From: Bordetella flabilis
GTDB lineage: Bacteria; Pseudomonadota; Gammaproteobacteria; Burkholderiales; Burkholderiaceae_B
Reading direction: 5' to 3'
Assembly (NCBI RefSeq): GCF_001676725.1
Contig: NZ_CP016172.1
Span: forward strand, 5,704,001-5,768,000
DNA: 64,000 nucleotides
Shown in pieces: positions 56,824 through 64,000 of this stretch (positions within the stretch are counted from its first letter, which is position 1; each line of letters starts with the position of its first letter). The position numbers and the translations under genes are program-made. The notes beneath the pieces were generated by a model. The model searched no databases and was not told where the DNA came from. It was given only the letters and a program-made list of their open reading frames with translations.

Positions 56824-57168
56824 GACCTTTGGAATCCCTTTTACGTACTACGGTAAGTACTTCCGTACTATGTACTTTGGTACTAGCTGACCCTCCGCTC
56901 CGGCGGGCTGTGGCCGCGGCTCGCAGGGGAGGCAGTTCGCGCAAAACCGCCTCAAACGTATACGTAAAAGAGCGGGTCTTGCAGACAAATAAAGCGCACA
57001 ACCCGGTAACCCAGGATCACTGCTCGAACATCATCGCCTGCGAATCATTGCCTGCGACAACTTGAGCGTGATCTGGCCGGCTTGCGCGCGGATAAATCAG
57101 TAAGCCCATGAATTTAGCGCAGTTCCGTGCCACTGTCAAAGGCTTTATCCGGGGAAACCCCCAGGGCG
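56824..57168. promoter_or_regulatory. rpsL leader with five GTAC motifs; str-operon promoter region
   Basis: 345 bp. The 39-bp stretch 56845-56883 holds five GTAC tetramers (starts at 56845, 56857, 56865, 56872, 56880), 20-60 nt upstream of the rpsL start. Farther out, TTGTCT at 56983-56988 with a TACGTA-like -10 about 16 nt downstream is a weak promoter candidate on the minus strand. The part near 57100 is the 3' flank of the pseudokinase gene and holds nothing I can name. Confidence 0.4.
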
Positions 57169-58455
57169 CTACTGGAATACGTGCCGCAGGGTCAGGGGCT
57201 GGCCCGGCTTCAGGTCCACGACCACTCGGTACGCCGGCAGGTCGGCGTTGCGCACCACCACCGTGTGCCGCCCGGCGGGCAGCGACAGCGTCTTCAACGG
57301 CGGACTGACACCGCGCGATTTGCCGTCGACGAAGATTTCGCCCCACGGGCGCACATCGAGGTTCACGGTGACGGCGACTGGCCGCGCCGGCTTGGCGGGC
57401 GCGGTCGCCGGCGCATTCTCCGCCACGCCGCCGTTCGCCCCTTCCTGCAGGGGTGCGGCGCCGGAAGGGGGACTCGCCGGCATGCCGCCGGCGCTTACCC
57501 CTGCGCCCGGCGCCGGCCCGGGCAACGGAGCGGTCGCCGTACCAGGCACGGGGACGGCGGGAACGCCCGGCACGCCCTGGCCAGCCGGGGCCACCGGCAA
57601 CGCGGCCGGGTGGCCGATGCGGGGAACGGCCGGATTGCCCGGCCCCGTGGATGGGCGGGAAGCCATCACGATGGGGCTCGATCCAGCGTCCTCGGGCGCA
57701 TCGTCGCCGTTCATCCAGGCCCAGACGCCTGCCACCGCGACGACGCCGGCGACCACCGCCAGCACGCCGGCCGCGCGGCGCCGGCGCTCCATGCCCGCAC
57801 CACCTTGCCGGACCCCGTCATTGGCGGCCGGTACGAAGGCCTTGTCGCTGGGCGCCAAGGGCGCCACGCCGACCTCGGCCGCATAGGGAACGCCGAGGGC
57901 CGTATACAGGTCGGCGATCGATTGCGGACGTTGCGCCGGGGTCATGGACAAGCCGCGGTCCACCGCCCCCAGGAAGGCTTCGTCATAGCCCTTCGGCCTG
58001 CGGATGGCGAGCGGCACGTAGTTGTCCTGCGCGCGCCGCGCCAGCGCATGAGGCGGCGGCGAGCCACTGATCAGCGAGCAGGCGACTGCGCTCAGCGCAT
58101 AGACATCGGTCCACGGGCCGCAGGCGCTTGCCGGCTCCGGATCGAACTGCTCTGCCGCGGCAAAGCAGGACGCCGGCTCCATCGCGCCGGAGTGATCCGG
58201 GTACAGGGCCGGCACCAGCAGGTGGGCATGGCCGAACTCGTCCAGGCCGACGGTCTGCACGGAGATGGCCCCATGGACCTTGCCCTGCTGATGCACGGCG
58301 ATCAGGCCGGGCGCCAGTTCCGCCAGCACACGTCCGATCCGTTTCTGGGGCACGCCTCCCGCGGCGGCCGCGGCGATCGCGGCCAAAGGCCTGTACCCGA
58401 ACGGCTCGGGTGCCGGGTGGCCGACCTCAGGCACGAACGCCCTGGATACAGACAT
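57169..58455 (-). CDS. T6SS-linked membrane pseudokinase with C-terminal PEGA domain
   Basis: 428 residues from the ATG at 58455 (GGAG 8 nt upstream; a further ATG at 58476 is possible). Residues about 20-190 match the C-lobe of Ser/Thr kinases: KVHGAISVQTVGLDEFGHAH at the catalytic-loop position, WTDVYALSAVACSLISGSPP (helix F) and AVDRGLSMTPAQRPQSIADL (helices H-I). The glycine loop and VAIK lysine are absent, the catalytic HRD reads HGA, and DFG is missing, so it should not phosphorylate. One TM helix (about 229-248), a Pro/Gly/Ala linker (250-358), then a PEGA domain (360-428; WGEIFVDGKSRG, LPAGRHTVVVRN) facing the periplasm. It is divergent from the FHA gene in a T6SS cluster. Confidence 0.75.
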   Translation of the reverse strand: MSVSRAFVPEVGHPAPEPFGYRPLAAIAAAAAGGVPQKRIGRVLAELAPGLIAVHQQGKVHGAISVQTVGLDEFGHAHLLVPALYPDHSGAMEPASCFAAAEQFDPEPASACGPWTDVYALSAVACSLISGSPPPHALARRAQDNYVPLAIRRPKGYDEAFLGAVDRGLSMTPAQRPQSIADLYTALGVPYAAEVGVAPLAPSDKAFVPAANDGVRQGGAGMERRRRAAGVLAVVAGVVAVAGVWAWMNGDDAPEDAGSSPIVMASRPSTGPGNPAVPRIGHPAALPVAPAGQGVPGVPAVPVPGTATAPLPGPAPGAGVSAGGMPASPPSGAAPLQEGANGGVAENAPATAPAKPARPVAVTVNLDVRPWGEIFVDGKSRGVSPPLKTLSLPAGRHTVVVRNADLPAYRVVVDLKPGQPLTLRHVFQ

Positions 58456-58907
58456 CGTCTTGACTCCGAATCCCATTCACTGCATCTCCCGCCGGTGTGC
58501 GCTTCGGCGCAGCACGCAACGATCTGGCATGGCGTGCCGGCGCGCATATCAGGCGCTTCGGCCGTATCGGGCCCCGGCTGCCAAAATTTTCGTATGAAAT
58601 GAATTGAAGCATGAAGTGAACGTGCTGACACGCTCCGGCGTACTTTTTACATCCGCTGTCGCCCAATGACATCATGCGTTCCCGCATGGGCGCCGAGGGA
58701 CGGAAGCCCTCAGACGGGCCCCGCGGCCACCGCAGGATGAGCGATTCAGTTATGTTTTGCAACGATTAGACGCAGCACGACGCCCATGCGTGGATCTCCT
58801 TCACTATCATCGTCGGCGGCGTCCATTCCGTCCTGCCGGCCGGGTCGCGGGCGCCAGGCATCACGCTTTGCCCAAGTCCTGCCACTCTGCTGCGGAGGCC
58901 CGACGCC
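58456..58907. other. divergent regulatory region between pseudokinase and FHA genes
   Basis: 452 bp carrying both leaders. The middle (58560-58660) is AT-richer than the surroundings, with AAAATTTT and ACTTTTTAC tracts, a likely promoter zone for one or both genes. I see no unambiguous -35/-10 pair and no gene; the long minus-strand frame at 58746-59678 is a shadow of the FHA gene. Confidence 0.4.
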
Positions 58908-59633
58908 ATGAAGCTCGCCTTGATCGGTCGCACCGACAACCAGCCGACCCACCCATTGGAAGCCACCTTCCAAGCCCCTGGCGGCACCATAGGCCGTGGC
59001 CAGCACAACCGGATGATCCTGCCCGATACGCAGCCGCCGCTGTGCCGCGTACAAGCGGTGGTCAGGCAGGACGATAACGGCTGGCACCTGGCGAACCTCA
59101 GCGAGATGGCAGCGGTGACCGTCAACGGCCAGCCCCTGCGCCGCCGCGACGACGCCCGCTTGCGCCATGGCGACAAGGTGACGATCGGCAATTACGTTCT
59201 GCAGGCCCACGACGAAGCGACGGGCGATGGCGCGGCATGTTCCACGTCCGATGTGTTCGGCGACCTGATCGGCCCCGGCACATTGCCGGTGGCCAGTGTC
59301 TCCGACCTGACCATGCATCCCTTTGACATGGAAAGCGCGGCGGTGCGTAATCCCGACGATCCGCTGACACAGCTGCCCGTGGCGGACTGGCACGGCGATG
59401 GATTGCCACGCGACCCCTTGGCGCTGTTCCCGCATACCGGTGAAGCGACGCATCAGCCTCTGTCCGACCCGACTCCCGCCATGCTGCCCGCCGAAGACCC
59501 ACTGGCGAGCCGACGCACCGGCGCCATTGCGGACGCGCTCCGCTCCGACAGTCCTGCCTGGCGGGATGCGCCCATGCGCGACGACACGCCGGAGTATGGC
59601 AACCCGTTGCCGCCGCCGAAAATACGCCGCTGA
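58908..59633 (+). CDS. FHA-domain protein (T6SS-associated), degenerate binding motif
   Basis: 241 residues; GGAGG lies 9 nt before the ATG. Residues 1-100 form an FHA domain: GGTIGRGQHNRMILPD (25-40, Arg30 conserved), WHLANLSEMAAVTVNG (59-74, Asn73-Gly74) and LRHGDKVTIGNYVLQ. The usual Ser-Arg-x-x-His of the phosphothreonine pocket is CRVQ at 46-49, and the StNGt Ser/Thr is also replaced, so phosphopeptide binding is doubtful. Residues 100-241 are Asp/Pro/Leu-rich and look disordered, with a basic end (PPPKIRR). T6SS FHA proteins (TagH/Fha) normally act downstream of the PpkA kinase. It converges on the DUF4150 gene. Confidence 0.85.
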   Translation: MKLALIGRTDNQPTHPLEATFQAPGGTIGRGQHNRMILPDTQPPLCRVQAVVRQDDNGWHLANLSEMAAVTVNGQPLRRRDDARLRHGDKVTIGNYVLQAHDEATGDGAACSTSDVFGDLIGPGTLPVASVSDLTMHPFDMESAAVRNPDDPLTQLPVADWHGDGLPRDPLALFPHTGEATHQPLSDPTPAMLPAEDPLASRRTGAIADALRSDSPAWRDAPMRDDTPEYGNPLPPPKIRR

Positions 59634-59716: not shown

Positions 59717-60109
59717 TCAGGGCGCCAGCATCAATACTTTGAATTGGCTCGGCACGATACGCATGCCCAGGGCGTTGACGCGATTCTGCAGCGTCAGGCT
59801 GGTCAAGCGCGTCGCTGGTGTGCCACGGATCAAGACAGTGAACGCGCCGGTGAGGTGGCGTGACTGGCTCATGAAAGTCTGCGACAGCAGCCCGCCGCCC
59901 GCCCCTGGCGTGTCGCCGTTGGTAATGGGCGTAAGCGTGGCCATGTTATGCGCGGGTGCGGCCATGAACAGAATGTTCCAGGCGTTTGGAATGGCCGTCG
60001 GCCCCACGGCGATGTTGGGGTATGGAAGGGGCGCCATGGCTGCCGGCGGCGTCTTGCAGACGTCGGGAAAGGCCAGGTCGACACCCATCAATTGGCAGTT
60101 CGCGAACAT
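59717..60109 (-). CDS. DUF4150 PAAR-like T6SS protein
   Basis: 130 residues from the ATG at 60109, with GGAG 6 nt upstream. FPDVCKTPPAAMAPLPYPNI, then GDTPGAGGGLLSQTFMSQSR and RGTPATRLTSLTLQN, match DUF4150 proteins, a PAAR-like family that caps VgrG and recruits effectors. There is no C-terminal toxin extension: the protein ends right after the core. It lies 13 nt after the DUF2169–pentapeptide gene. Confidence 0.85.
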   Translation of the reverse strand: MFANCQLMGVDLAFPDVCKTPPAAMAPLPYPNIAVGPTAIPNAWNILFMAAPAHNMATLTPITNGDTPGAGGGLLSQTFMSQSRHLTGAFTVLIRGTPATRLTSLTLQNRVNALGMRIVPSQFKVLMLAP

Positions 60110-60122
60110 GATGTGCTCCAGG

Positions 60123-62762
60123 TCATTGCGTTGCGTCCGGGACAGGCGCGCGCCGTCGCGGCCATAGCTTGGCGCCGGCGGTATAGGCTCCGTGCATCGC
60201 CGTCGTATCGTCCAGAAGGGCCTGGCCGAGATCGGCGCGGAACAGGTTGGCCTCGCCCAGGTCGGCACGCGTGAAAACCGCCTTCGTCAGAATGGCGTTG
60301 ACGAGGTTGGCGCCGCGCAGCGACGCGCCGTTGAAATCGGCGCGCGTGAACAGGCTTTCGGCGGCCTCGATATGGTCCAGACGCGCATCGACGAACGTGC
60401 ATTCGGAAAAATCGCTGCCGTACAGCCGTGCGTGGGAGAAGCGGCCGCCGTCCAGCTTCACCCCGCGCATGCCACAGTGCCGCAACTCGGCCCCTTCGAA
60501 CACCACCGCTTCGAGCGCCGTGCCGCTGGAAAAAGAGGAGGCCTCCAGCCGCGCATGCGAAAAATCCATTCCGGCGCAGCGCGTATTGATGAAGGCGCAG
60601 CGCGTCAGCCGCGCACGACGCAGCGCCAGCGATGCGAAGGCGCATTCCATCCAGCCGCAGCCATCGAAAACGGCATCCTCGAAACCGCTGTCATGAAACG
60701 TGGCGCGAACCGCCAGCACGTCGGCCCACGACGTCGCCTGGAAATCGCACGCCTCGAAGCGGCTTTCATTCATGCGCGGTCGCCGCAGTGCGGCGCCGGC
60801 GAATGAACATGCAAGAAAATGCGCGCCTTCCAATTGCGTTTCTTGCAGCGCCGCGCCAGCCATCTCGACGCCTTCGAGCCTGGCCTGGGCGAGGCTGGAC
60901 TGCACGAGGCGCGCACGCGCGAGGGACCCGCGCTTCATCGACGCGCGTGCCAGTACGGCTTGCGTGAAGTCACAGTCATCCAGGCACGCGCCATCCAGCG
61001 TCGCGCCTTCCAGCGACGCCCCGCGAAAACAACTGCCGCGCAGATCCATGCCCGACAGGTCCGCGCCGACCAGGCTTGCGCCGCTGAAGTCGCGGTCGCG
61101 CTGATAGCGCGCGGCGACGCGGCGGCGCGTGCGCTGCGCGCGATGCGGCGCAAGCCCGGACGGCCGATCGTTGGTGTGCGCAGACAGCAGGTACATGCGG
61201 TCGAGCGACGCACTGAACCGGTCATGCAATCCCGGGCGTGCCGGCGTCCTGGGATCACCCGCAGATCCGCCTGCGGGCGCCGTCATCATGGCGGCGTGGG
61301 CATCGTAGTCACGCAGCTGGCGCCTGAGCGTACGCACGTCGAAGCCGCTGGGGGTTGCGCCCTGCCTGGCCTGCGCGACCGCATCCAGATCGATGTCCGC
61401 GCGCACCGCGAAGGCGCGCATATCCGCATCGGCCAGCAATTCGGCGCGGCCGCGCGCCAGCAGCGCCTCACCCTGCGCGCGCTCGCGCTCCAGCCATTCC
61501 AGTCGCGCGGCCAGGTCCTGGACAGGCGGTGGACCCTCGTCGGCTTGCAACGCGGGCAGATACAGGTCCGGGTCCAGGCCCTCCGCAGCCAGCGTCGCCC
61601 GATGCGCGTCGCGCCGGCGTGCCGCGCCCGCAAGCATGTTGCTCGCGGCGGGCCGCGCCATGACATCCGGCAGCGCGGCATCCGGCGCCCGTTCGTAAAG
61701 TGCTGCCGCGACGAGATCCGACTCCCGCAACGCATGCAAGGCGCCCTCACGCGTATGCACACGGCGGCGCAATACGTTGTCGTAGTGCCCCTTGTCGCGA
61801 TGTTCTCCGGAGAGTTCGATCGCCGGCATCAGATGCGCGATATCGGCCGCATCGTCTTCCTGGATGCGCAGCGCGCCATGCCAGATCATCGCGACGCGAT
61901 CGCGATGCGGAAAGAACCACACGGTGGTCAGCCGCAGGTCGATCTCCTCCAGCGCACCGCCGGAATGGCGGCTGGCGAAACAGCGTGCGCGCCAGTCCGG
62001 AAGATGCCCGTGCTGCACGGCACGATGCGGATGCATGTTATGGATTTCGTAAGCGGCCCGCGCGGGGACCTCCCGCCGTTCGCTCCACCACTGGTCCTCG
62101 GGCGCCGCATTGAAGAAGCGGAGGTCCATATCCGCCGGGAATCCCGGAAAAGACTGCTCCAGCCAGGCCTGCCCGTAGGCGGACCCCATGCGCGCCATGC
62201 GTTGCGGCCAGTCCGGAGGAATGGCGTCGAAGCCGGCCGGCGGCGTATTGGCATCCGGCCTGGATATGCGCTGCCTCGGCGACTCCACGTTGGGCAAGGG
62301 CACGACATCCATGCCGTTGATCCGCCGTGGCGCGCTGCCGATGCCCAGCGGATTTTCGGCGCATTGCGGACCGCCGCGTGCGTGCCGCCAATCCACGCGC
62401 ATCGCATCGAAAGGGGCCGGCGCCGTGGCATGCCCGTCCAGCCAGTACCGATCGCCGAATACCAGCAGCGATTTCTCCAGGCCCCCGACGTGCGCGCGCA
62501 CCGCGCAAGCGGTCTTGTCGGCCTGATGGGCGGTATAGCCCTGGCCGCTGACCAGGAACTCCGGGCACGGCTTCGGGATACCGAGGTCCAGCAGACCGCC
62601 AGCCTCTTCGGCCGCGAGCTGCCACAGCGCCTGCTCGGTCAAAAGTACAGGCTGCGCGTCCAGTGTTGCCATGGCGAGCACGGCGGTACCCAGCATATCG
62701 ACGCCTTGCCAGCGATACGGCCGCATCAGCAGGCTGAGCCTGGCGGGTTTTACGACACGCAT
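60123..62762 (-). CDS. DUF2169 domain fused to a long pentapeptide-repeat region (T6SS-associated)
   Basis: 879 residues from the ATG at 62762; the upstream frame crosses the small membrane protein gene and is not used. Residues about 1-330 are DUF2169-like (MRVVKPARLSLLMRPYRW, FGDRYWLDG, PMGIG-type NPLGIGSAPRR, PSQR-type FNAAPEDQW), a domain that escorts effectors to VgrG/PAAR. A helical linker (about 400-550) follows, then nearly 60 A(D/N)LxG-type pentapeptides (about 558-850) such as ADLSGMDLRGSCFRGASLEG, predicted to form a right-handed beta-helix. Gene order vgrG–membrane protein–DUF2169/pentapeptide–DUF4150 is a T6SS cargo-loading cassette. The long repeat could be structural or the cargo itself. 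Confidence 0.85.
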   Translation of the reverse strand: MRVVKPARLSLLMRPYRWQGVDMLGTAVLAMATLDAQPVLLTEQALWQLAAEEAGGLLDLGIPKPCPEFLVSGQGYTAHQADKTACAVRAHVGGLEKSLLVFGDRYWLDGHATAPAPFDAMRVDWRHARGGPQCAENPLGIGSAPRRINGMDVVPLPNVESPRQRISRPDANTPPAGFDAIPPDWPQRMARMGSAYGQAWLEQSFPGFPADMDLRFFNAAPEDQWWSERREVPARAAYEIHNMHPHRAVQHGHLPDWRARCFASRHSGGALEEIDLRLTTVWFFPHRDRVAMIWHGALRIQEDDAADIAHLMPAIELSGEHRDKGHYDNVLRRRVHTREGALHALRESDLVAAALYERAPDAALPDVMARPAASNMLAGAARRRDAHRATLAAEGLDPDLYLPALQADEGPPPVQDLAARLEWLERERAQGEALLARGRAELLADADMRAFAVRADIDLDAVAQARQGATPSGFDVRTLRRQLRDYDAHAAMMTAPAGGSAGDPRTPARPGLHDRFSASLDRMYLLSAHTNDRPSGLAPHRAQRTRRRVAARYQRDRDFSGASLVGADLSGMDLRGSCFRGASLEGATLDGACLDDCDFTQAVLARASMKRGSLARARLVQSSLAQARLEGVEMAGAALQETQLEGAHFLACSFAGAALRRPRMNESRFEACDFQATSWADVLAVRATFHDSGFEDAVFDGCGWMECAFASLALRRARLTRCAFINTRCAGMDFSHARLEASSFSSGTALEAVVFEGAELRHCGMRGVKLDGGRFSHARLYGSDFSECTFVDARLDHIEAAESLFTRADFNGASLRGANLVNAILTKAVFTRADLGEANLFRADLGQALLDDTTAMHGAYTAGAKLWPRRRAPVPDATQ

Positions 62763-62880
62763 GCAACCGCCTGAAGTAGTTCGACCCCAATCCGGGGTTG
62801 TGCTGTCCGCGCCACCATCGCCTGCCGTTTCCGGCACTGCGACGACAAACGCCGGACCATTGGACGACCGCCTGCGCGCA

Positions 62881-63285
62881 TCATTCCGTGTGCTGGTCCA
62901 CGACCACTTCGCGCGTTCGCACGTCCATGCGGACCCGGATGTCGCGGCCTTCGGAGAAGTCACCGAAACGCGTCGGCGATAGCGGCACGCTGATTTCCGT
63001 TTCGAACGGCGTGGCCGCCATCGGGTGCACGGACAGCCGCAGCTTCCAGATGAAGTATTGCTCCGCCCCGAGCCGCGCGCCGGTATCGAGCGACTGCAGG
63101 ATACGCGCGGTGGCGGGCATTCCATTGCGTTGGATGGCATGCTGCGCGCGCGCCGCCTGGGCCTTGCGGTCGTTGTGCCGCCATACCGAATATATGGCCA
63201 GGGCGGCTTCCGCCGCGATCACGATCGCGACCGCGATCGACCACCCCGCCCAGTCAGGCAATCCCCAGCGTTCCATGATGCCCAT
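62881..63285 (-). CDS. hypothetical inner-membrane protein in T6SS cassette
   Basis: 134 residues; ATG at 63285 with GGAGG 10 nt upstream. One transmembrane helix at about 13-35 (AGWSIAVAIVIAAEAALAIY), then a cytoplasmic or periplasmic part with beta-strand character: GMPATARILQSLDTGARLG, KLRLSVHPMAATPFETEISV, and GRDIRVRMDVRTREVVVD. The second half resembles small DUF3592-like domains, but I cannot name a family. It is 36 nt downstream of vgrG and 118 nt upstream of the DUF2169 gene. Confidence 0.7.
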   Translation of the reverse strand: MGIMERWGLPDWAGWSIAVAIVIAAEAALAIYSVWRHNDRKAQAARAQHAIQRNGMPATARILQSLDTGARLGAEQYFIWKLRLSVHPMAATPFETEISVPLSPTRFGDFSEGRDIRVRMDVRTREVVVDQHTE

Positions 63286-63321: not shown

Positions 63322-64000
63322 TCAGATGATGGTGAACAGGCCGGTGAGCAGGCTTTTGGCGCCCGCGGTTTCGGTCGTGAGGCCTGTGTTGCGGTACTCG
63401 ACCGCGCCCATCTTGGTTGCGGTCGCGAAGATGTCCATCTTGACGGTGGTCAGGTCGACCTTGGAGATGGTCACCCCCAGGTTGGAGCGCCAGATCGCGG
63501 CGTTGGCCAGTCCCATCGTGGCCTGCGCCACGGTCAGGTTCAGGCCGAACGGCGTGGCCTTGAGCCAGCTTTTCGTCGACAGGTCCTTGACCTGCTTGCC
63601 ATTGAGCACCACGTCCGTGTCGCTGGTAATGGTGATGGGCTGCGGCGCGGTGATGTCGATACCGGCGCTGGACGAAGTCATCGTGATCTGGTTGGCCGCC
63701 GTCGCATCCATGCCGGCGGCCGTCGACGCCATCGTGACCTGGCCCTGCGCCTTCAGGTCCATGCCCGCCCCCACGGATTCGACGTGGACCTGGCCTTGCG
63801 CCTTCTCCGTCAGTGATCCGGTCTGCACCTGGTGCAACGCGTCTCCGGACGTCACCTGCACCTCTTCGCCGTCGTTCAGCGTTTCGATGAAGGCGCCCGT
63901 CACGTTGCGGCGCTCGCCGCCGGCCGCGATGGTGGTATCCAGGCCCTGGTCGAACTTCTCGGTGGTCATACCGCCCGACACATGCAGGATGCGGGCACCG
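63322..64000 (-). CDS. vgrG: type VI secretion spike protein VgrG, C-terminal part (5' end outside window)
   Basis: The frame is open through the right edge; the visible 226 codons form the C-terminus. Reading begins ARILHVSGGMTTEKFDQGLD, then repeated V-x-x-G-x/strand segments (AGMDLKAQGQVTMASTAAGM, then GIDITAPQPITITSDTDVVL), typical of the DUF2345/gp5-type beta-helix needle of VgrG. The last 70 residues (SWLKATPFGLNLTVAQATMG and later TISKVDLTTVKMDIFAT) form an extra region after the needle, which can bind PAAR or adaptors. No enzymatic extension is recognised in the visible part. Confidence 0.8.
   Translation of the reverse strand, partial: GARILHVSGGMTTEKFDQGLDTTIAAGGERRNVTGAFIETLNDGEEVQVTSGDALHQVQTGSLTEKAQGQVHVESVGAGMDLKAQGQVTMASTAAGMDATAANQITMTSSSAGIDITAPQPITITSDTDVVLNGKQVKDLSTKSWLKATPFGLNLTVAQATMGLANAAIWRSNLGVTISKVDLTTVKMDIFATATKMGAVEYRNTGLTTETAGAKSLLTGLFTII

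What the first reader, a model, noticed from the sequence alone, without database searches (positions are those of the whole stretch)
57169..59633. Degenerate kinase/FHA pair in a T6SS cluster: a non-catalytic threonine-phosphorylation pathway?
The kinase-like protein lacks the N-lobe, the VAIK Lys, HRD (HGA) and DFG, and the divergent FHA protein lacks the Ser and His of the pThr pocket. In known T6SS, PpkA kinase and Fha protein activate the apparatus through phosphorylation. Here both signatures seem lost together while folds, TM helix and periplasmic PEGA domain are kept, suggesting coevolution to phosphorylation-independent sensing through the PEGA domain.
Basis: partly seen in the sequence, partly recalled or inferred. 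Interest (0 to 1): 0.8.

Follow-up and report, generated by a model that had tools for sequence, protein, structure and literature searches.

The report
Retired kinase relay beside T6SS genes
A Bordetella-type bacterium carries a kinase that has lost its whole ATP-binding half next to a trimmed partner protein that has lost its phosphate-reading parts, remains of a phosphorylation switch that close relatives seem to have abandoned while keeping the secretion machine it used to control.

The parts
57169..58476 (-). PpkA remnant (pseudokinase), 435 aa: C-lobe, TM helix, Pro/Ala linker, PEGA
57877..58386 (-). kinase C-lobe, residues 31-200; HRD replaced by HGA (residues 68-70), DFG absent; Glu109, Trp122, Asp124 and Arg183 invariant
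57709..57789 (-). predicted transmembrane helix, residues 230-256
   Evidence: hydropathy maximum 2.3 after the C-lobe
57175..57381 (-). PEGA-like domain, residues 366-434, predicted periplasmic
   Evidence: AF2 block means 86-97; profile made from the family's own C-terminal region, 106 bits
58477..58907 (.). 431-bp intergenic stretch between divergent genes; no N-lobe remnant in any frame
58908..59633 (+). T6SS Fha-type protein, 241 aa, without the C-terminal domain PF20232
58908..59207 (+). FHA domain, residues 1-100: Arg30 kept, Ser46->Cys, His49->Gln, NGT motif absent
59208..59630 (+). low-confidence (probably disordered) tail with conserved GPGTLPV, HPF, RNPxDPL and DPLALF motifs
   Evidence: lower dN than the FHA domain
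59717..60268 (-). PAAR-like spike-tip protein (start codon unsure)
   Evidence: PF13665 1.2e-34
60123..63140 (-). DUF2169 plus pentapeptide-repeat protein (putative VgrG/PAAR adaptor; start unsure)
   Evidence: PF09937 2.6e-75
62881..63285 (-). small predicted membrane protein of the island; start and overlap with the DUF2169 ORF unsure
63322..64000 (-). VgrG C-terminal part (DUF2345), cut by the window end
   Evidence: matches the VgrG of L119
56446..56823 (-). rpsL, conserved left border of the interval

Best explanation
The ORF at 57169-58476 descends from the T6SS kinase PpkA but has lost the whole ATP-binding lobe and the catalytic motifs, so it should not phosphorylate anything; what remains is a membrane-anchored C-lobe platform joined to a periplasmic PEGA domain. 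The ORF at 58908-59633 descends from the T6SS Fha protein but has lost the phospho-Thr serine and the C-terminal domain that probably carries the acceptor Thr. Together they are what is left after the PpkA-PppA-Fha phosphorylation switch was dismantled in an ancestor of Bordetella, Achromobacter and Advenella. Shown by sequence: the losses, their extent across the clade, the occupied ppkA slot next to TagF-TssM-TssL-TssK in core clusters of relatives, selection for keeping the proteins, and the island position in the two closest relatives. Inferred: the remnant works as a phosphorylation-independent scaffold or sensor, with PEGA reading the periplasm or wall and the C-lobe and Fha tail recruiting or holding T6SS parts, perhaps opposed by the still present TagF. 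The adjacency in the window is probably secondary: a T6SS cluster once lay between rpsL and rpoC and its TagF-TssM-TssL-TssK middle went, leaving the two end genes side by side; in two relatives the island copy is the only T6SS-type Fha found.
For: N-lobe absent and PEGA kept in 45 of 45 remnant rows from 36 genomes, the window's included (rows were picked as remnants beforehand, so this measures uniformity, not prevalence). C-lobe = PpkA 122-296 by fold and by profile, E 1e-69. Same operon slot, TssK-TssL-TssM-TagF-kinase, with an intact kinase in G075 and, for TssM-TagF-kinase, in G045. Ser46 in 38 of 39 intact-kinase clusters against 3 of 25 remnant genomes. PF20232 in 0 of 22 remnant genomes and 4 of 4 intact-kinase genomes examined. 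In 21 relatives no PP2C hit and no over-cut-off Pkinase lies within 80 kb of a TssC gene on the same contig. Purifying selection on C-lobe, PEGA and Fha tail. T6SS core between rpsL and rpoC in G020 and G058 (these two have identical C-lobes, so hardly two independent cases). Island FHA nests among core FHAs, with modest support 83/88. G008 and G012 core stretches have no FHA although searched without filters. Published precedent: in A. tumefaciens secretion is at wild-type level without PpkA and TagF-PppA (PMC5995506, passages), and in A. citrulli PpkA also acts as a structural recruiter (PMC12607579, abstract and passages).
Against: In A. citrulli a kinase-inactive PpkA does not restore killing (PMC12607579), so a dead PpkA is not automatically enough. 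Arg30 is still present in 20 of 25 remnant-genome FHAs, and Cys at 46 may not abolish phosphate binding; two remnant genomes (G033, G092) keep both Arg30 and Ser46. No structure of a complex, no binding or activity data. The association is mainly one clade. Activity of a T6SS that carries this remnant is not shown: A. xylosoxidans TAX-1 is active (PMC9245596) but I could not establish that TAX-1 is the remnant-bearing cluster. Many relatives carry an rpsL-rpoC remnant gene without T6SS genes near it.
Confidence: 0.6

Rival explanations
1. Decaying relic: the island pair is left over from a lost T6SS cluster and has little present function.
For: Island order equals the two ends of a core cluster with the middle missing. 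The FHA domain of the island copy evolves fast: window-G008 dN 0.462 / dS 0.78, window-G012 0.417 / 1.26.
Against: Open frames in window, G008 and G012; C-lobe dN/dS 0.18 and 0.11, Fha tail 0.18 and 0.32; G008 and G012 have no other FHA of this type (for G012); the island kinase copies form a supported clade of their own (100/97).
Confidence: 0.17
2. The FHA domain still reads phospho-Thr, written by another kinase outside the cluster, with Arg30 and Cys46 binding phosphate; only the PpkA input was lost.
For: Arg30 kept in 20 of 25; 7 of 21 relatives have a PP2C-kinase fusion elsewhere; A. tumefaciens Fha S46A alone only reduces secretion (PMC3953482, passages).
Against: G008 and G012, the closest relatives examined, have no Pkinase hit over cut-off; Fha domain PF20232 with the likely acceptor Thr is gone; Arg30 itself is lost in 5 of 25.
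Confidence: 0.12
3. The island kinase remnant belongs to an envelope-signalling locus and not to the T6SS: in many relatives the gene at rpsL-rpoC sits with a CHASE2 histidine kinase and a LysM/FecR protein.
For: Of 14 rpsL-rpoC remnant loci without tss genes, 10 have a CHASE2-kinase homologue and 9 of these also a LysM/FecR homologue; in L131 the domains and two response regulators were confirmed by Pfam; one remnant genome, G039, has no TssC hit.
Against: Window, G008 and G012 have T6SS Fha, PAAR, DUF2169 and VgrG there instead; the 10 CHASE2-linked kinase copies are one clade (96/91) that does not include the window's.
Confidence: 0.11

Closest known systems
PpkA, T6SS Ser/Thr kinase (structures 5hnv, 5x1r)
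   Different: No N-lobe, no VAIK Lys, HGA for HRD, no DFG; no PP2C partner found near T6SS in relatives
Fha/TagH of T6SS (TIGR03354; A. tumefaciens Fha with R30 and S46)
   Same: N-terminal FHA domain of the same subfamily, shared DPLALF-type linker motif, core position next to TssK in relatives
   Different: Ser46->Cys; PF20232 domain with the likely acceptor Thr absent; 241 aa; TIGR03354 55 bits against a cut-off of 120
TagF-Fha, phosphorylation-independent control of T6SS (A. tumefaciens, P. aeruginosa; PMC5995506)
   Same: TagF lies next to the remnant kinase in core clusters of relatives; Fha kept
   Different: There it coexists with a working PpkA; here catalysis is gone
MviN/Rv3910 pseudokinase with FhaA, mycobacteria (Gee 2012, seen only as a reference entry; complex 3oun listed)
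   Same: A pseudokinase paired with an FHA protein
   Different: That pairing depends on phosphorylation of the pseudokinase (title only; details recalled); here the FHA serine is lost
FHA-like domains not expected to read phosphate, e.g. YscD of T3SS (recalled)
   Same: FHA fold in a secretion machine (PF16697 22.8 bits, under cut-off)
   Different: Different machine and partners

Membership tests
PpkA (T6SS Ser/Thr kinase) | homologous C-lobe and ppkA slot in the tss operon | tested here: met
   C-lobe. Slot TssK-TssL-TssM-TagF-kinase: met by core copies in relatives; the island copy itself is not in a tss operon
PpkA (T6SS Ser/Thr kinase) | catalytic kinase: N-lobe, VAIK Lys, HRD Asp, DFG Asp | tested here: not met
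PpkA (T6SS Ser/Thr kinase) | phosphorylates Fha or TssL | not testable with these tools
   needs biochemistry
Fha/TagH | FHA domain fold | tested here: met
   PF00498; AF2 and Foldseek to known FHA domains, only 1 match at E <= 0.001
Fha/TagH | phospho-Thr pocket Arg and Ser | tested here: not met
   Arg30 present, Ser46 replaced by Cys
Fha/TagH | C-terminal domain PF20232 | tested here: not met
   absent in the window protein and from 22 of 22 remnant genomes
Threonine phosphorylation pathway (PpkA-PppA-Fha) | PppA phosphatase with the T6SS | tested here: inconclusive
   no PP2C_2 hit within 80 kb of TssC on the same contig in 21 relatives; window genome not held; some assemblies are fragmented
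T6SS core cluster | tss core genes beside the pair | tested here: not met
   none typed in the window next to the pair; relatives G008 and G012 show an orphan VgrG island; what lies beyond 64000 is unseen

The most novel reading that the evidence does not exclude
Much of a bacterial family (Alcaligenaceae, as far as the named members tell) has converted a phospho-relay into a phosphorylation-free switch: a PEGA-gated, half-kinase membrane protein and a tail-only Fha control T6SS assembly directly, with TagF as the remaining brake. Fha can be supplied in trans from an island between rpsL and rpoC, which would place a T6SS assembly factor between two of the main translation and transcription gene blocks.
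Probability: 0.3. Interest if true: 0.8.

Novelty: new variant of a known kind. Interest (0 to 1): 0.55.

Why it matters
Phosphorylated Fha is described as required for a functional T6SS in P. aeruginosa and S. marcescens (PMC10482370, passages), and PpkA activity and Fha Thr640 as required in A. citrulli (PMC12607579). A clade that keeps half of PpkA and half of Fha but none of the phosphorylation parts is a natural experiment that separates the structural from the catalytic role of these proteins. It names the parts that evolution keeps: C-lobe, TM helix, PEGA and the Fha tail motifs. A C-lobe-only kinase, without any N-lobe, is also an unusual kind of pseudokinase (recalled: most keep both lobes). 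My searches found no paper that describes this (listings from a library of open PMC papers only; the one use of 'pseudokinase' in PMC3953482 is a reference title).

Tried and rejected
Rejected: (a) sequencing or frame error hiding an N-lobe: no N-lobe match in six frames of 57100-58960, and 45 of 45 remnant rows agree. (b) Loss of His49 as a marker: Gln there in 24 of 25 intact-kinase genomes and 3 of 14 new clusters. (c) Enterobacterales pseudokinases (L025, L026, L032, L040) as a second T6SS case: no T6SS marker within 10 kb (with Bordetella-derived queries that could miss diverged genes), so I do not count them as independent support. (d) NCBIfam hits of the kinase-like ORF to lanthionine synthetase LanL and defence proteins: far under cut-off. 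(e) Pfam GH75 hit: 12 bits.

Counter-examples kept in the counts: L250 has an intact kinase with Ala46; G033 and G092 have the remnant with Ser46 and Arg30; G016 also aligns Ser at 46 but with a poor FHA match (26 bits) and Arg30 lost. Left out of the counts: loci that repeat a genome (in one search L089, L090, L162, L163 and one of L113/L216; L235; L233 and the cut piece in L137); L264 (one frame holding both domains, Lys replaced by Arg, no PF20232-like tail, Ser46) and L265 (intact kinase, no PF20232-like tail, no T6SS marker, Ser46; with it the count would be 39 of 40), and the 18 of 36 loci without a kinase hit. G080 has the remnant but no FHA in the 20 kb fetched. Five of the 25 intact-kinase genomes (L004, L014, L046, L052, L212) show no other T6SS marker in the stretch held.
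Full report
What is there. The window is from a Bordetella-type genome: the str ribosomal operon (rpsL, rpsG, fusA; tuf by recall of its sequence) lies directly left of the finding, and the closest named protein relatives are Bordetella and Achromobacter. The genome itself is not held, so everything beyond position 64000 is argued from relatives.

How uniform it is. I gathered 45 such genes from 36 genomes, the window's included; they were picked as remnants by tree or locus, so the following measures uniformity, not prevalence. 45 of 45 have no N-lobe match, 45 of 45 have the PEGA domain (profile made from the family's own alignment), and 40 of 45 have a strong hydrophobic segment after the C-lobe; the other five score 1.65-1.80 against a threshold of 1.8. 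In the most eroded C-lobe PEGA is still clear: G016 has 36 bits for the C-lobe and 88 for PEGA. On a tree of 46 rows the 35 remnants are one clade apart from 11 intact kinases, 100/100; window, G008 and G012 form a clade, 100/97; its sister is not resolved and the bootstrap had not fully settled. Among relatives of the same draw, G075 has TssK-TssL-TssM-TagF followed by an intact kinase and G045 has TssM-TagF-intact kinase, so the remnant sits in the ppkA slot, and not every relative has lost the kinase.

The Fha-like protein. 58908-59633(+), 241 aa, PF00498 2.4e-9 and TIGR03354 1.2e-14, which at 55 bits is under its cut-off of 120 and matches profile positions 11-156 of 420. By AF2 the FHA part is fair and the tail poor; Foldseek finds known FHA domains, Ki67 and GarA first, but only one at E <= 0.001. 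Arg30, Asn34, Cys46, Gln49 and Met67 are invariant in the 31 rows. In A. tumefaciens Fha, R30A or S46A reduces and R30A/S46A abolishes Hcp secretion (PMC3953482, passages). Intact Fha proteins have a C-terminal domain, PF20232 (3 of 3 scanned; 0 of 2 remnant-linked Fha proteins scanned). In two Serratia relatives a Thr at 435 or 439, counted from the first Met, lies in an MTMIL stretch of that part; S. marcescens PpkA phosphorylates Fha Thr438 (PMC6082577, passages), which I take to be the same residue by position only. PF20232 is absent from 22 of 22 remnant genomes, from 3 of 3 Enterobacterales pseudokinase genomes, and present in 4 of 4 genomes with intact kinase clusters.

Kinase state against pocket state. 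One search looked at every locus then held that has both genes; after removing repeats of a genome: intact kinase (Lys, HRD Asp, Asn, DFG Asp all present) 25 genomes, of which 25 have Arg30 and Ser46 and 24 have Gln at 49; remnant 18, of which 13 have Cys46 and 5 Gly46, and 2 have also lost Arg30 (recounted). These 25 were found mostly through kinase patterns, so they lean to close PpkA kin. From the FHA side, an even draw of 300 genomes of the order gave 54 with a match and 68 listed places; I fetched 36 loci around 36 of them. 18 of the 36 hold a kinase hit: 16 intact at the four positions, one with Arg for the Lys (L264), one remnant (L268). Of the 16, one repeats a genome already counted (L235) and one has no PF20232-like tail and no T6SS marker (L265, Ser46) and was dropped; of the remaining 14 clusters 13 have Ser46 and one (L250) Ala46, all have Arg30, and 3 have Gln at 49. 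Seven more remnant genomes: Cys46 in G058 and G077; Ala46 with Arg30 lost in G034 and G067; Ser46 with Arg30 kept in G033 and G092; G016 too eroded to be sure (Ser by alignment, Arg30 lost). Total: Ser46 in 38 of 39 intact clusters and 3 of 25 remnant genomes; Arg30 lost in 0 of 39 and 5 of 25; both kept in 2 of 25 remnants; Gln49 in 27 of 39 intact clusters. Because the remnants are one clade, these are not independent counts.

Other parts of the pathway. In 21 relatives, each with a remnant, every over-cut-off Pkinase, 10 places in 9 genomes, lies on another contig than TssC or more than 80 kb away; seven are PP2C-kinase fusions by shared reading frame. No PP2C_2 hit lies within 80 kb of a TssC gene on the same contig in these 21. 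In 12 further remnant genomes 10 have no PP2C_2 hit and two have one on another contig than their T6SS; of the four intact-kinase genomes in that call, G102 and G133 have one beside Fha and kinase, G075 one about 13 kb from the kinase, G045 none nearby. In eight Enterobacterales with intact PpkA, Fha is followed by a PP2C gene in 8 of 8. TagF is kept next to the remnant in core clusters (PF09867 in the 2 proteins scanned; homologues in others). Some assemblies are fragmented, so absence near TssC is not absolute.

Where the pair sits. In G008 and G012 the order is rpsL, remnant(-), FHA(+), PAAR-like(-), DUF2169(-), VgrG(-), MEKHLA protein(+), a 550-580 aa protein(+), then rpoC. The tss core is elsewhere, carries its own remnant next to TagF, and the core stretches fetched have no FHA although searched without filters. 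By PF00498 G008 has one other FHA, of an unrelated type with a long frame; G012 has one such and one weak partial hit at C1:1086095 that I did not fetch, and which the T6SS-FHA alignment did not find in G012. So the island copy is the only T6SS-type FHA found in these two genomes. In G020 and G058, which have identical C-lobes and so are close kin, a T6SS core lies between rpsL and rpoC: remnant, TagF, TssM, TssL, TssK, FHA(+), then ORFs that look like ClpV and TssF by eye, TssC, TssB, further genes, then rpoC. The island FHA nests among core FHAs with modest support, 83/88. I read the island as such a cluster with the middle gone. Joint insertion of a VgrG-Fha module next to a resident remnant gene is not excluded: 14 other loci have a remnant gene at rpsL-rpoC without tss genes, 10 of them with a CHASE2 histidine kinase homologue (9 also with LysM/FecR); these 10 are one clade, 96/91, without the window's copy.

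Selection. Window against G008, NG86 dN/dS: C-lobe 0.159/0.90, PEGA 0.284/0.73, linker 0.664/1.41, FHA domain 0.462/0.78, Fha tail 0.324/1.77; against G012 0.170/1.57, 0.214/1.56, 0.684/1.26, 0.417/1.26, 0.311/0.98. dS values above 1 are rough. Seven other kinase-remnant pairs have ratios 0.14-0.50 and five other FHA pairs 0.16-0.27. The FHA domain of the island copy has a higher dN than its tail in both comparisons; by ratio the contrast holds against G008 (0.59 and 0.18) but not against G012 (0.33 and 0.32).

Mechanism. Shown: catalysis cannot work as in any kinase known to me, and the phosphate-reading and phosphate-carrying parts of Fha are lost or replaced. Inferred: a structural role. 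Support from print: PpkA of A. citrulli recruits T6SS parts and forms condensates as well as phosphorylating Fha (PMC12607579, abstract and passages), and A. tumefaciens without PpkA and TagF-PppA secretes at wild-type level with Fha described as probably a core component (PMC5995506, passages). Against: only wild-type PpkA restores killing in A. citrulli, and phosphorylated Fha is required in P. aeruginosa and S. marcescens (PMC10482370, passages). RtkS binding to the periplasmic part of Serratia PpkA (PMC6082577, passages) shows that this side can take an input. Whether a T6SS of the remnant type fires is open: A. xylosoxidans TAX-1 secretes Hcp and kills (PMC9245596, abstract, passages and section 5), and 'Fha' and 'PpkA' do not occur in its main text, but I did not establish that TAX-1 is the remnant-bearing cluster. 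The B. bronchiseptica locus paper (PMC3470547, passages and section 17) does not settle it either.

Novelty. Searches for PpkA or T6SS with pseudokinase, for Bordetella with Achromobacter and threonine phosphorylation, and for Alcaligenaceae with Fha/PpkA gave nothing on this (listings only, apart from the papers named; the word 'pseudokinase' in PMC3953482 is a reference title). It is a new variant of a known kind.

Noticed in passing
L025, L026, L032, L040 (Escherichia sp. ESNIH1, Buttiauxella, Siccibacter, Enterobacter sp.): A different full-length PpkA pseudokinase (P-loop, Lys and most catalytic residues lost) sits away from T6SS markers with homologues of the gene that lies next to ppkA in Pantoea T6SS loci (probably RtkS, by recall) and an SH3 lipoprotein; three of the four genomes have no VI_FHA hit, and none of those three has PF20232.
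   Followed up: partly
L035, L036, L129, L130, L131, L134, L136, L201, L202, L204: At rpsL-rpoC these Bordetella/Achromobacter-type genomes carry the kinase remnant with a CHASE2 histidine kinase, in 9 of 10 also a LysM/FecR protein, instead of T6SS genes: a possible envelope-stress locus with a pseudokinase member; response regulators confirmed in L131.
   Followed up: partly
L208, L217, L218 (G020) and L207, L220, L221 (G058): A T6SS core is inserted between rpsL and rpoC, usually a very conserved gene neighbourhood.
   Followed up: partly
L199 (G039): A kinase remnant with PEGA in a genome without a TssC hit.
   Followed up: no
L250 (G243): Intact PpkA beside an Fha with Ala at the phospho-Thr serine but His kept: a single counter-example.
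   Followed up: no
window 59208-59630 and FHA tails of relatives: The tail has repeated DPL motifs; a DPLALF-type motif also occurs in linkers of intact Fha proteins, so it may be a docking motif.
   Followed up: partly
L213 (G012:C1:1297913-1299367): A strong PP2C hit next to a weak kinase hit, about 330 kb from the nearest TssC; not a T6SS pair by position.
   Followed up: no
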